DNA from: an uncultured bacterium
GTDB taxonomy: Bacteria > Patescibacteriota > Patescibacteriia > Patescibacteriales > UBA12465
Assembly (NCBI GenBank): GCA_903945435.1
Contig: CAJAVM010000010.1
Location: 1-44,759 of the forward strand
Reading direction: 5' to 3'
DNA: 44,759 nucleotides
Made by a program: the position numbers and the translations under genes. Shown here in pieces: positions 5,688 to 19,799 of the stretch. The notes beneath the pieces were generated by a model that was given only the letters and a program-made list of their open reading frames with translations, did no database searches and was not told where the DNA came from. Position 1 is the first letter of the stretch; every line of letters begins with the position of its first letter.

Positions 5688-7517
5688 TTAAGCAACTACC
5701 GGCTTAGGACCAACAATACTTTCAAATTCTGTTTTTTCTAACGTTTCTTTCTCCATCAAGGCCGCAACAATCGCTTCTAGTTCTTTTTTCTTATCACGAA
5801 TGATAACAGCAGCGATTGCTTCTCCTTGTCTAATAAAACCGCTTATTTCCTCATCGATTTTCTCGGCAACCTTTTCACTGTAATCTCTTTGTTCATGAAT
5901 TTCACGACCTAAGAATATCATTTCCTCTTTTTGGCCATAAGTACGCGGGCCAAGATGATCACTCATTCCATAATCGGTTACTAAACTACGAGCTAATGAT
6001 GTTGCTCGACGTAAATCAGAGGTTGCTCCAGTAGTTACTTCAGAAAAAATTTCTTTTTCAACCATATGACCAGCTAACAAAACTGCAATCTCGGAAATGA
6101 ATTCTGATTTAGCATGCATGTGTCTATCCTCAGACGGAGCCTTTAAAGTATAACCCCCAGCAGAACCACGAGAAATAATAGAAATTTTATGGACTGGATC
6201 AGCCTCGGGAATAAAGTGGGCGACTAAAGCATGACCAGCTTCATGATAAGCAGTAATCTTCTTTTCCTTATCCGTAATTACACGGCTCTTTCTTTCAGGA
6301 CCAATCATTACTTTTTCAATAGCTTCAAATAAATCTTCATTAAAAATTTCTTTTTTATTCTCACGAGCCGCTAAAATAGCTGCTTCATTTAAGATGTTAG
6401 CTAGCTCAGCCCCAGAAAAACCAGAAGTACGTTCAGCAATTTTTTTCAAATCAACGCCAGTACTCATCGGTTTATTTTTAATATGAACATTTAAAATCTC
6501 TTCTCTATCTTTTAAATCAGGTAAATCAATTGTTACTCTTCTATCAAAACGTCCTGGGCGAAGCAAGGCCGGGTCTAAAACATCAGGACGATTAGTAGCA
6601 GCAATTACAATAATATTTTGAGTTGCTTCAAAGCCATCCATCTCAACTAAAATTTGATTTAAAGTTTGCTCCCTTTCATCATGACTTCCACCGAGACCGG
6701 AACCACGTCGACGACCAACAGCATCAATTTCATCAATAAATACTATACATGGTGCGTTCTTTTTCGCCTTTTCAAATAAAGAACGGACCCTTGAAGCGCC
6801 AACACCAACAAACATTTCTACGAATTCTGAACCGGACATATGGAAAAATGGAACTTTAGCTTCTCCGGCAACTGAACGAGCTAATAAAGTTTTTCCCGTT
6901 CCTGGAGCACCTAACAATAATACACCTCGAGGAATCTTAGCACCTAAATCGTGAAACTTTTTAGGGAATCTTAAAAACTCAACAATCTCTTTTAATTCTT
7001 CTTTAGCTTCTTTTGCACCAGCAACATCTTTAAAAGTTGCTCTATTTTTTTCATCAGGCTTAAAATCTTTTGCGGTCGATTGGCCAAAACTCATCGCACG
7101 TGAATTTGAACCTTGAACACCGCGCATCATAAAGAAAATAAAACCACCAACTAATAAAAATGGTAATAGGAATGGTAAAATATTAATCAAAAAATAATCC
7201 CAACCACTTGCATCTTTAACTGAAATTTTTACATTAGTTAATTTGTTTTTATCAACCCCAAGATTACTAAATAAAGTCGATAAAGATTCGGATGGCTCTT
7301 TGCTAATTATTTCTTTTTTACCATCTTTTAATGTCGCGGTTATTTTATTTCCACTAACTACTAATTCTGTAACCTCTTCTTGATTAACTCTATTAATTAA
7401 AGTTTCAATCCCAACTGTTTTTACATCACCAGAATTTCCAGCAAAAGCACTAAAAACAGCAGCAATTATCAAAAAAATGCCCAAAAAAAGTAAGAAATTT
7501 TTTATTAGATTTTTCAT
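5688..7517 (-). CDS. ftsH: ATP-dependent zinc metalloprotease FtsH
   Basis: Membrane-anchored AAA+ protease that degrades membrane and misfolded soluble proteins. With the start at 7517 it has 609 residues: TM1 (about 4-25), extracytoplasmic domain, TM2 (about 108-131), Walker A GAPGTGKT (203-210), Walker [10 protein letters not shown] (257-265), SRH arginine finger in the block ending [12 protein letters not shown], and zinc site HEAGH (425-429). The start was chosen because an in-frame ATG 57 nt upstream lies inside the spacer of a good promoter, so it cannot be in the m[13 protein letters not shown] also gives the usual short cytoplasmic N-terminus. FtsH would be a candidate protease for tmRNA-tagged proteins. 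Confidence 0.97.
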
Positions 7518-7553
7518 GTATTTGAATTTAATCGAACTTAAATGATTATCTCT

Positions 7554-7582
7554 ATTATAAGAGGAAAGGCTCATTTTTGCAA
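7554..7582 (-). promoter_or_regulatory. ftsH promoter
   Basis: Minus-strand TTGCAA (7582-7577), 17-nt spacer, TATAAT (7559-7554). Predicted start near 7547 leaves a 30-nt leader before the ATG at 7517. This decides the ftsH start codon. Confidence 0.75.
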
Positions 7583-7597
7583 CGACTACGACTTAAT

Positions 7598-7626
7598 AAA
7601 AATTCCTCGTAAGTGGAGGAATTTTT
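7598..7626. terminator. Terminator between the S1 gene and ftsH
   Basis: Stem AAAAATTCCTC (7598-7608) with GAGGAATTTTT (7616-7626), 7-nt loop. T runs on both strands make it bidirectional. It closes the monocistronic S1-domain transcript before the ftsH promoter. Confidence 0.85.
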
Positions 7627-7643
7627 ATTTTTATATTTTCGAA

Positions 7644-8843
7644 TTATTCTTCTGTTTTTTCTACCTTTACTTTCTTAGGAGCTTTTTTCTTATCTTCTTT
7701 TACCTCTTCGGTTTTTGCTTCAGAAACTTCTTTATCTTCTTTCTTGGAAGCCTTCTTACCGTCGGCAAGTTTTAAACCTAAGCGATGTTCTGAAGGAGAA
7801 ACGCTTACAACTTCAAAGTCTTTAACCTCATCTGATTTAAACAAATCAGTAATTTTTTCTTTAGCACCAATATTTAACTGACTAACGTGAGCTAAACCAT
7901 GAATTTCTTCATCAAGCTTAACAAATAAACCAAATGGATTAACTTTCAAAATAGTACCAGGAACAACCTGTCCAGCTTTATATTTAGCACTAGCTTCTAA
8001 CCATGGGTCCTTTAATAATTTCTTAGCACTTAAGAAAACTTTAGCGCCATCAATAGAAATAATTTCTGCTTTTATTTCATCGCCAACTTTATACATCTCA
8101 CTTGGAGAATCAATTCTCTGCCAAGCTAATTCAGAAATATGAATTAAGCCTTCGATTCCTTCACCGAAAGAAACAAAAACTCCAAAGTTGGTAATCGCTG
8201 TAATTTTACCATCAACACCCATTCCAATAGTATATTTATCAAGAGCTGGTTTTTGTCTTTTATTCCAAACATCCTTTTCACTGAAAATAATTTTATTATC
8301 TTCTTCGTTTAAAGTCATAACAGTAACTTCAAATTCTTGACCAACGAAAGATTTTAATTTTTCTAAAATTCGACTCTTATCACCGCCAGAAATACGTGGA
8401 TAATTTTCTGGAGCTAATTGTGAAACTGGTAAGAAACCATCAATCTGACAATAACGACTTAACAAACCGCCTTTATTAGCATCAACAATTTTAACCTTAA
8501 CAGTAGTCTTATCTTTAAGTGCCTGACGTAAATTGTGCCAAGCTTTTTCTTGACCGACTAAACGAAAAGAAAGTTCAAGCTCACCATTTTCATTTTCTTC
8601 ATCAACAACAGCCGCTTCAACTTCATCACCAGGTTTTAATTCAGAAAATTCAGGAACTTCATTATAAAGTTCTGGGCCACGAACAACTCCCATTAAAACA
8701 CCAGCAACATCCAATTTAACTTCAGCTTTAGAAGCCGAAATAACGGTTGCCTTAATTATATCCCCGGCTTGAGGAATTTTGATATCATCCTTTTCCAATA
8801 ACTTGGCAAAGTCTAAATCTTGGTCAACATTTTTGTCTTCCAT
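7644..8843 (-). CDS. rpsA: S1-domain RNA-binding protein (ribosomal protein S1 type)
   Basis: Has four S1/OB-fold repeats in about 399 residues: roughly 25-95, 110-190, 200-270 and 290-355 (the last two most typical, with NFGVFVSFGEGIEGLIHISE and NPFGLFVKLDEEIHGLAHVS). A Lys/Glu-rich tail follows. Six repeats occur in E. coli S1; four is common in bacteria with smaller S1. It presumably helps load mRNA on the 30S subunit, which matters where Shine-Dalgarno motifs are absent, as here. The ATG at 8843 is chosen because its AT-rich context matches the neighbours. A TTG at 8858, preceded by AAAGGA at 9 nt, would add five residues and cannot be excluded. It has its own promoter, a structured leader and a terminator. 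Confidence 0.88.
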   Translation of the reverse strand: MEDKNVDQDLDFAKLLEKDDIKIPQAGDIIKATVISASKAEVKLDVAGVLMGVVRGPELYNEVPEFSELKPGDEVEAAVVDEENENGELELSFRLVGQEKAWHNLRQALKDKTTVKVKIVDANKGGLLSRYCQIDGFLPVSQLAPENYPRISGGDKSRILEKLKSFVGQEFEVTVMTLNEEDNKIIFSEKDVWNKRQKPALDKYTIGMGVDGKITAITNFGVFVSFGEGIEGLIHISELAWQRIDSPSEMYKVGDEIKAEIISIDGAKVFLSAKKLLKDPWLEASAKYKAGQVVPGTILKVNPFGLFVKLDEEIHGLAHVSQLNIGAKEKITDLFKSDEVKDFEVVSVSPSEHRLGLKLADGKKASKKEDKEVSEAKTEEVKEDKKKAPKKVKVEKTEE

Positions 8844-8914
8844 ATTATTTAAAGCCAACTCTTTTTATCCTTTAGCAACAAAAAAAGCGTGCTGAACCCC
8901 ATAAAAATAGAGCT

Positions 8915-8968
8915 CTTCGGTCGCCTAGTAGAGCAATAGCTGCTACCCGAAGATTTTATTAAAGGCGA
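8915..8968 (-). promoter_or_regulatory. Predicted H-type pseudoknot in the S1 mRNA leader
   Basis: On the minus strand, starting about 14 nt after the predicted transcript start: strand a TCGCCT (8968-8963), 10-nt AT loop, strand b CTTCGG (8952-8947), an internal hairpin (CTAC/GTAG and AGC/GCT around a 4-nt loop, 8946-8928), strand a' AGGCGA (8926-8921), and directly adjacent strand b' CCGAAG (8920-8915). Both 6-bp helices are perfect and the order a-b-a'-b' defines a pseudoknot. It ends about 70 nt before the start codon. An autoregulatory site or riboswitch is inferred; I do not recognise it as a known family. Confidence 0.6.
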
Positions 8969-8988
8969 AATATTCAATTTGTATTAGT

Positions 8989-9017
8989 ATTTTAAGGCAA
9001 TTACTGGGTTTTGTCAA
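8989..9017 (-). promoter_or_regulatory. Promoter of the S1-domain gene
   Basis: Minus-strand TTGACA (9017-9012), 17-nt spacer, TAAAAT (8994-8989). Predicted start is near 8982, giving a leader of about 140 nt, by far the longest regulated-looking mRNA leader in the window. Confidence 0.8.
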
Positions 9018-19210: not shown

Positions 19211-19282
19211 AGCGGGTAACGGGAATCGAACCCGTCTCTCGACCTTGGCAAGGTCGCATAATAACCACTATACGATACCCGC
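19211..19282 (-). tRNA. tRNA-Gly (GCC)
   Basis: Minus-strand cloverleaf. Acceptor GCGGGTA pairs with TACCCGC, the T-arm is CGGGTTCGATTCCCG, and the anticodon stem GACCT/AGGTC carries loop TGCCA with anticodon GCC. Discriminator is U. CCA is not encoded. Anticodon and fold are unambiguous. Confidence 0.96.
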
Positions 19283-19301
19283 ATTTGTGTATCGCTATAC
19301 G

Positions 19302-19385
19302 TGCCGCGAGCGAGAATCGAACTCGCACTGTATCGCTACAACTGGATTTTAAGTCCAGCGCGTCTACCAGTTCCGCCATCGCGGC
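19302..19385 (-). tRNA. tRNA-Leu (UAA)
   Basis: Minus-strand class II tRNA with a long variable arm. Acceptor GCCGCGA pairs with TCGCGGC, T-arm GCGAGTTCGATTCTCGC, and anticodon loop CTTAAAA gives UAA. CCA is not encoded. It lies 34 nt after the tmRNA and 19 nt before tRNA-Gly. Confidence 0.96.
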
Positions 19386-19419
19386 CTATTTTATTTAATC
19401 AAACTACAAACGTAATCTG

Positions 19420-19799
19420 TGGAGATGATGGGAGTTGAACCCATGTCCAATCGGTTTTCCTAAATACATTTACAAAGTTATTCCAATTTTTTGGATTTAG
19501 CTTGAATCATCATAAACTGGACAAAAGCGATTCAAGCGGTCTTCCTATTATTTTGATATGATTCGGAAAGCGCAAATTATATCTATCTCCATGTTTATGA
19601 CACCGGCTAGCGGGTATGGAGACTCGCCGTAGTCCGATGGTTTCAGCTATTAAGCTAAAACAGGAGCGAAACTTGGTGTTGCCCAAGTAAACGCTGTTGC
19701 CTTTTTGGCATTTGTGTTTTTTTAGCCATTTTAACGCGATTAACTAAGCGCGCTTTGAATATTTAGAAAAGAATCCAACTGTCGATTCCTTGCATCCCC
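19420..19799 (-). ncRNA. ssrA: Transfer-messenger RNA (tmRNA)
   Basis: The 5' end GGGGATGCAAGGAATCGACAG and the 3' end with T-arm GGGTTCAACTCCC and acceptor CATCTCC pair as the tRNA-like acceptor stem (one G-U). Length is about 380 nt, in the usual range. The tag frame ends TAATAG at about 19646-19651 and encodes a peptide whose last residues are ATPSFAPVLA; the resume codon is uncertain, with AKKATAFTWATPSFAPVLA as one possible tag. The gene begins 9 nt after the smpB stop, so both partners of trans-translation share a transcript. CCA is not encoded. Confidence 0.95.

What the first reader, a model, noticed from the sequence alone, without database searches (positions are those of the whole stretch)
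8915..8968. Perfect H-type pseudoknot in the leader of the S1-domain protein mRNA
Two perfect 6-bp helices (TCGCCT/AGGCGA and CTTCGG/CCGAAG) interlock in the order a-b-a'-b', with the two 3' strands directly adjacent and a third hairpin in the connecting loop. The element begins about 14 nt into a ~140-nt leader. Chance formation of two interlocked GC-containing 6-bp helices with a nested hairpin in an AT-rich leader is unlikely. E. coli S1 represses its own mRNA; an equivalent RNA site, or a ligand-binding riboswitch, is a reasonable hypothesis. I know of no named family with this layout upstream of S1.
Basis: partly seen in the sequence, partly recalled or inferred. Interest (0 to 1): 0.8.

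Follow-up and report, generated by a model that had tools for sequence, protein, structure and literature searches.

The report
Conserved pseudoknot leader of ribosomal-protein-S1 mRNA
The start of the messenger RNA for ribosomal protein S1 in a whole lineage of ultrasmall (Patescibacteria, Falkowbacteria-type) bacteria folds into a strongly conserved, previously uncatalogued knot-plus-hairpin structure ending in a run of U's near the start codon, which most likely lets the S1 protein control its own production.

Summary
In detail: two perfect helices interlock at 8914-8968 (minus strand), and the coordinates are right. It is real by comparative evidence. 54 of 56 S1 upstream regions from the same order carry it, with compensatory changes in both pseudoknot helices. 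A covariance model finds it in 99 of 111 genomes of the order (68 of 71 near-complete ones). No other convincing copy was found, and all 37 loci checked lead into S1. Rfam has no match.

The full element is: promoter; P1/P2 pseudoknot with optional P3; P4 hairpin and GGUUAA box; a 6-9 nt U-tract; usually a P5 hairpin that buries the U-tract just before AUG. In some genomes the U-tract abuts the AUG instead. A P4-like core with an adjacent hairpin, without P1, persists in part of the wider class.

Best explanation: a ribosomal leader through which S1 represses its own translation, competing with 30S subunits at a start site without a strong Shine-Dalgarno sequence. S1 binding is inferred, not shown; ftsH follows S1 in most genomes, so the regulated unit may include it. 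A small-molecule riboswitch is not excluded but has no support.

The parts
8989..9017 (-). sigma-70-type promoter TTGACA-17-TAAAAT; start of transcription predicted near 8982
   Evidence: in most homologs with a good promoter match the -10 box ends 16-24 nt before P1
8963..8968 (-). P1 5' strand UCGCCU
   Evidence: covariation
8954..8962 (-). loop L1 UUAAUAAAA, A/U-rich, conserved
8947..8953 (-). P2 5' strand UCUUCGG
   Evidence: 7 of 7 pairs change on both sides
8928..8946 (-). optional hairpin P3 in loop L2; homologs range from a loop of 1-5 nt to a 40-nt insert
8921..8926 (-). P1 3' strand AGGCGA
8914..8920 (-). P2 3' strand CCGAAGA, directly after the P1 3' strand
8896..8913 (-). P4 hairpin GCUCUAU-UUUU-AUGGGGU; nearly invariant C-G and U-G pairs near its base
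   Evidence: class-wide core
8893..8898 (-). conserved box at the 3' base of P4 (GGUUCA here; consensus GGUUAA)
8880..8886 (-). U-tract (7 U here; 6-9 U in 53 leaders)
8853..8893 (-). P5 hairpin that pairs the U-tract with an A-rich arm ending 9 nt before the start codon; absent where the U-tract abuts AUG
   Evidence: (mean z -2.4 over 38 leaders)
7644..8843 (-). ribosomal protein S1 homolog (399 aa, ATG at 8843), the gene directly downstream of the leader
5688..7574 (-). ftsH, next gene downstream, conserved neighbour of S1; possible member of the same transcription unit

Best explanation
It is a cis-acting ribosomal-protein leader (r-leader) of the S1 gene. Shown by computation: a 5'-terminal pseudoknot (P1/P2, optional P3), a P4 hairpin with a GGUUAA box, a U-tract, and usually a P5 hairpin that pairs the U-tract just before the AUG, all held as one unit directly upstream of S1. 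Inferred: when S1 exceeds what ribosomes can hold, free S1 binds the pseudoknot/P4 and the U-tract and blocks entry of the 30S subunit, so S1 translation falls. When S1 is limiting, ribosome-bound S1 uses the same U-tract, opens P5 and places the start codon, since no strong Shine-Dalgarno sequence is present.
For: 54/56 S1 upstream regions of the order carry it. Covariation: 94.1% of cells paired, 16 of 21 pairs with changes on both sides, score 0.627 vs 0.242 shuffled, 0/500; P1 passes although it is not in the model; covariation is also seen on an alignment made without structure; parsimony gives 2-8 double changes at each P2 pair and three at one P1 pair. Found in 99/111 genomes of the order, 68/71 near-complete. 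The three second matches that were inspected are not copies: two lie antisense at the end of a ClpB-like gene, one inside an ORF. All 37 loci checked lead into S1. The upstream neighbour changes: purB in only 2 of 39 loci. E. coli S1 binds pseudoknots (SELEX, tmRNA, rpsO, tisB) and single-stranded AU-rich tracts (PMC7708055), and both kinds of site are present here. E. coli bS1 represses its own mRNA by competition at an initiation region without a canonical SD (PMC10931766); strong SD complementarity is missing in 46 of 53 leaders here. No terminator at the U-tract in 51 of 53 leaders.
Against: No binding or expression data exist. E. coli autorepression is reported to need S1 domain D6 (PMC10931766), and this S1 has only about 400 residues. 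Weak SDs are common in this genome (28 of 34 window genes lack a strong one), so SD absence is not specific to S1. ftsH follows S1 in most genomes of the order, so synteny alone cannot tell which product is sensed. S1 leaders outside the order mostly lack the pseudoknot.
Confidence: 0.7

Rival explanations
1. It is not a repressor site but a constitutive translation enhancer: the pseudoknot plus U-tract form an S1-dependent standby/landing site that replaces the Shine-Dalgarno sequence and ensures S1 synthesis, without feedback.
For: The tisB mRNA of E. coli uses a 5' pseudoknot plus a single-stranded region as an S1-dependent standby site (PMC7708055). The U-tract lies directly before AUG in several leaders. 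SD weak in 46/53.
Against: Many genes in the genome lack an SD, yet only S1 carries the element; strict gene specificity with covariation is what r-leaders show (criteria used in PMC7247131).
Confidence: 0.17
2. A small-molecule riboswitch: the pseudoknot is an aptamer for a metabolite or ion, and P5 is the expression platform that exposes or hides the U-tract and start codon.
For: Compact 5'-terminal pseudoknot with a conserved A/U-rich loop, and a variable hairpin (P5) near the start codon.
Against: Never found before a metabolic or transport gene; only S1 (then ftsH) follows. No match to any Rfam family, riboswitches included.
Confidence: 0.06
3. The leader controls the S1-ftsH transcript as a whole (transcription attenuation or mRNA stability), through FtsH-related signals or another protein such as S2.
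For: S1-ftsH order conserved in 35 of 39 loci of the order.
Against: No intrinsic terminator at the U-tract in 51 of 53 leaders or in the window leader; GGUUAA, U-tract and P5 lie next to the S1 start codon, not ftsH.
Confidence: 0.06
4. Chance structure in an AT-rich leader.
For: Loosely defined interlocked 6+6 bp helices occur in 13% of shuffles.
Against: Compensatory changes in 54 homologous leaders and presence in 99/111 genomes.
Confidence: 0.01

Closest known systems
E. coli/gammaproteobacterial rpsA translation initiation region (bS1 autoregulation)
   Same: Same gene; structured leader without a canonical SD; AU-rich single strands; competition of free S1 with 30S-bound S1 (PMC10931766) is the mechanism proposed here.
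   Different: From general knowledge the E. coli element is a set of hairpins without a 5' pseudoknot; no Rfam similarity was found; distant lineage; this S1 is shorter.
Ribosomal leaders (r-leaders) catalogued by Eckert and Weinberg 2020 (PMC7247131)
   Same: Covarying 5' UTR RNA consistently upstream of one r-protein gene; same criteria of evidence.
   Different: None of their 20 new leaders has S1 as ligand, and the main text names no Patescibacteria.
tisB mRNA standby site of E. coli
   Same: 5' pseudoknot plus single-stranded region, bound by S1 alone and by 30S (PMC7708055).
   Different: Toxin mRNA; other topology (L1 0, L2 2, L3 3 nt there; here L1 about 7-11, L2 1-40, L3 0-2 nt); not on the S1 gene.
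rpsO (uS15) leader pseudoknots of E. coli and mycobacteria
   Same: r-protein mRNA regulated through a leader pseudoknot; the mycobacterial one lies upstream of the start site (PMC10931766).
   Different: Different protein and gene; no sequence relation shown.

Membership tests
r-leader (cis-acting ribosomal-protein leader) | Conserved RNA secondary structure supported by covariation | tested here: met
r-leader (cis-acting ribosomal-protein leader) | Consistently in the 5' UTR of genes for one r-protein | tested here: met
   37 of 37 loci inspected lead into S1
r-leader (cis-acting ribosomal-protein leader) | Encoded r-protein binds the leader and lowers expression | not testable with these tools
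   needs binding and reporter assays
rpsA leader of gammaproteobacteria | No canonical SD before the S1 start codon | tested here: met
   46 of 53 leaders weaker than -4 kcal/mol against the genome's own anti-SD; not specific, since most genes there lack it too
rpsA leader of gammaproteobacteria | Homologous sequence and structure | not tested
   no Rfam match, but the E. coli leader itself was not aligned
Known Rfam families, riboswitches included | Covariance-model match at or near the family threshold | tested here: not met
   only chance-level SNORA50/HOTAIRM1 at E 4-7; 20 homologous leaders, none at E <= 1
Intrinsic-terminator attenuator | GC hairpin directly before the U-tract | tested here: not met
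   window; 2 of 53 leaders
H-type pseudoknot | Two interlocked helices a-b-a'-b' | tested here: met
   but the near-zero spacer lies between the two 3' strands (L3) rather than at L2, so the classical coaxial arrangement is unlikely (inference)

The most novel reading that the evidence does not exclude
A new RNA class with which one order of Patescibacteria senses the state of its translation machinery (free S1, or S1-loaded 30S) through a 5' pseudoknot linked to a U-tract/P5 switch at an SD-less start site, built on an older hairpin core found in parts of the whole class.
Probability: 0.3. Interest if true: 0.75.

Novelty: new variant of a known kind. Interest (0 to 1): 0.62.

Why it matters
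From the papers read, S1 autoregulation is described for gammaproteobacteria, and little is known of gene control in Patescibacteria. A compact, single-gene, order-wide RNA that combines both kinds of S1 recognition element gives a directly testable S1 operator, suggests that S1 control exists with a different RNA architecture far from E. coli, and bears on how SD-poor ultrasmall bacteria start translation.

Tried and rejected
Rfam at gathering and permissive thresholds on the window and 20 homologs: nothing. Transcription attenuator: rejected. Extra copies elsewhere: the three matches inspected (E 0.009-0.08) lie antisense at the 3' end of a ClpB-like gene with a terminator-like hairpin, or inside an ORF; in the window's own genome the next match is at E 0.57. 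Class- and phylum-wide model searches found no match outside the order, but with strict filters that lose weak cases. S1 loci of other orders gave only weak model scores, so the P4 core was tested directly. Mimicry of the 16S 3' end (AUCACCUCCUUU vs AAUCACCUUUAAU) was considered and not pursued because P1 varies A-U to G-C there. SD absence as a special feature of S1 was rejected: most genes in the window lack one. Literature searches for an S1 leader in Patescibacteria found none, in an open-access library only.

Full report
Observation. On the minus strand the strands UCGCCU 8968-8963 / AGGCGA 8926-8921 (P1) and UCUUCGG 8953-8947 / CCGAAGA 8920-8914 (P2) interlock, with hairpin P3 (8946-8928) between. 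The S1 start is taken as ATG at 8843, which aligns with homologs; the ORF lister's TTG at 8858 is a mechanical call. A strong promoter (TTGACA-17-TAAAAT, 11 of 12) lies at 9017-8989. Folding without pseudoknots gives P1, P3, P4 and P5 at -38.7 kcal/mol (z -3.28, 0/200) and leaves both P2 strands free, as expected for a pseudoknot. As a pattern in one sequence the claim is mixed: any 6+6 bp interlocked pair occurs in 2597/20000 shuffles, but with four G-C pairs per helix and limited loop lengths in 0/20000.

Homologs. S1 was located in related genomes, and 56 upstream regions were read. Nearly all show AAUAAAUA-CACCU-UUAAUAAAA-P2-(P3)-AGGUG-P2'-RCU-P4-GGUUAA-nnnn-U7-AUU-(P5)-AUG. A pseudoknot finder scores 36/56 at 30 or more against 13/224 shuffles. 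MAFFT of 20 leaders, made without structure, already shows covariation in all three helices (score 0.536 vs 0.269 shuffled, slid structures 0.13-0.22). A covariance model of P2+P4 finds 54 of 56 at E <= 1, all but one at E < 0.003. On that alignment 94.1% of cells pair, 16 of 21 pairs change on both sides, and the covariation score is 0.627 vs 0.242. P1, which the model does not contain, pairs in 91.3% of cells and switches A-U to G-C in 14 sequences. On an S1 protein tree of 30 genomes, parsimony needs 2-8 double changes at each P2 pair and 3 at one P1 pair. Support for P1 is thus good but weaker than for P2 and P4, because half of P1 (CCU/AGG) hardly varies.

Distribution. The refined model matches 99 of 111 genomes of the order, 68 of 71 near-complete and clean, almost always once. 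With lenient filters in 38 genomes the second matches are mostly at chance level; the best ones were inspected and are not copies. All 37 loci checked carry S1 directly downstream. Named relatives include several Candidatus Falkowbacteria. No match was found elsewhere in the class or phylum with strict filters. In the wider class, 15 of 67 S1 upstream regions contain a P4-like RCY-stem-GG[U/C]UA element against 1.0 expected, and 8 of these 15 have a strong hairpin ending right before it against 0.7 expected. So the hairpin + P4 core looks older than the P1 pseudoknot; this is an inference from pattern matching, not a tested homology.

Other parts. The U-tract (6-9 U) is present in 53 leaders. 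In 38 leaders with at least 15 nt between U-tract and AUG, this stretch folds more stably than shuffles (mean z -2.4; 25 below -2), usually by pairing the U-tract and its 5' flank with an A-rich arm close to the AUG. Some leaders instead have the U-tract directly before AUG. No terminator hairpin abuts the tract in 51 of 53.

Mechanism. S1 in E. coli binds pseudoknots with nanomolar affinity and AU-rich single strands (PMC7708055), and represses its own SD-less mRNA by competing with 30S-bound S1 (PMC10931766). This leader offers both kinds of site within about 140 nt. The genome keeps an intact anti-SD (CACCUCC), yet strong SDs are rare (6 of 34 window genes, 7 of 53 S1 leaders). I therefore favour S1 autorepression (0.7). 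The steps of S1 binding, P5 opening and repression are inferred. The main rival is a constitutive S1-dependent standby site (0.17).

Limits. The S1-ftsH order is conserved (35 of 39 loci), so co-regulation of ftsH is possible. Covariation was not tested with R-scape, and shuffles ignore relatedness. E-values of the covariance models are rough (short calibration). The literature search covers open-access papers only, so a published S1 leader of this lineage could have been missed.

Noticed in passing
window 5688-8843 (minus strand): S1 is followed by ftsH in 35 of 39 loci of the order, and ftsH lies near S1 in 20 of 27 loci from other orders of the class: a deeply kept gene pair.
   Followed up: partly
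S1 upstream regions of other orders in the class (L160, L161, L162, L166, L172, L188, L192, L194, L202, L210): A simpler leader: one strong hairpin directly followed by an RCY-stem-GG[U/C]UAA hairpin, without an evident P1 pseudoknot.
   Followed up: partly
window, 34 long ORFs: Strong Shine-Dalgarno matches are rare (6 of 34) although the 16S 3' end keeps CACCUCC.
   Followed up: partly
L061 155-280 (minus strand): The L2 insert of this leader contains a second copy of the AGGUGGCC strand of P1/P2, perhaps a duplication or alternative pairing partner.
   Followed up: no
window 19211-19799 (minus strand): A tmRNA gene and two tRNA genes in a row; a 23S rRNA gene is cut by the window start at 1-2679.
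   Followed up: no
L055 (G044), L056 (G045), L059 (G050): Divergent cases: L055 has a degenerate U-tract (AUUUAUUU); L056 and L059 have S1 but no detectable element.
   Followed up: no
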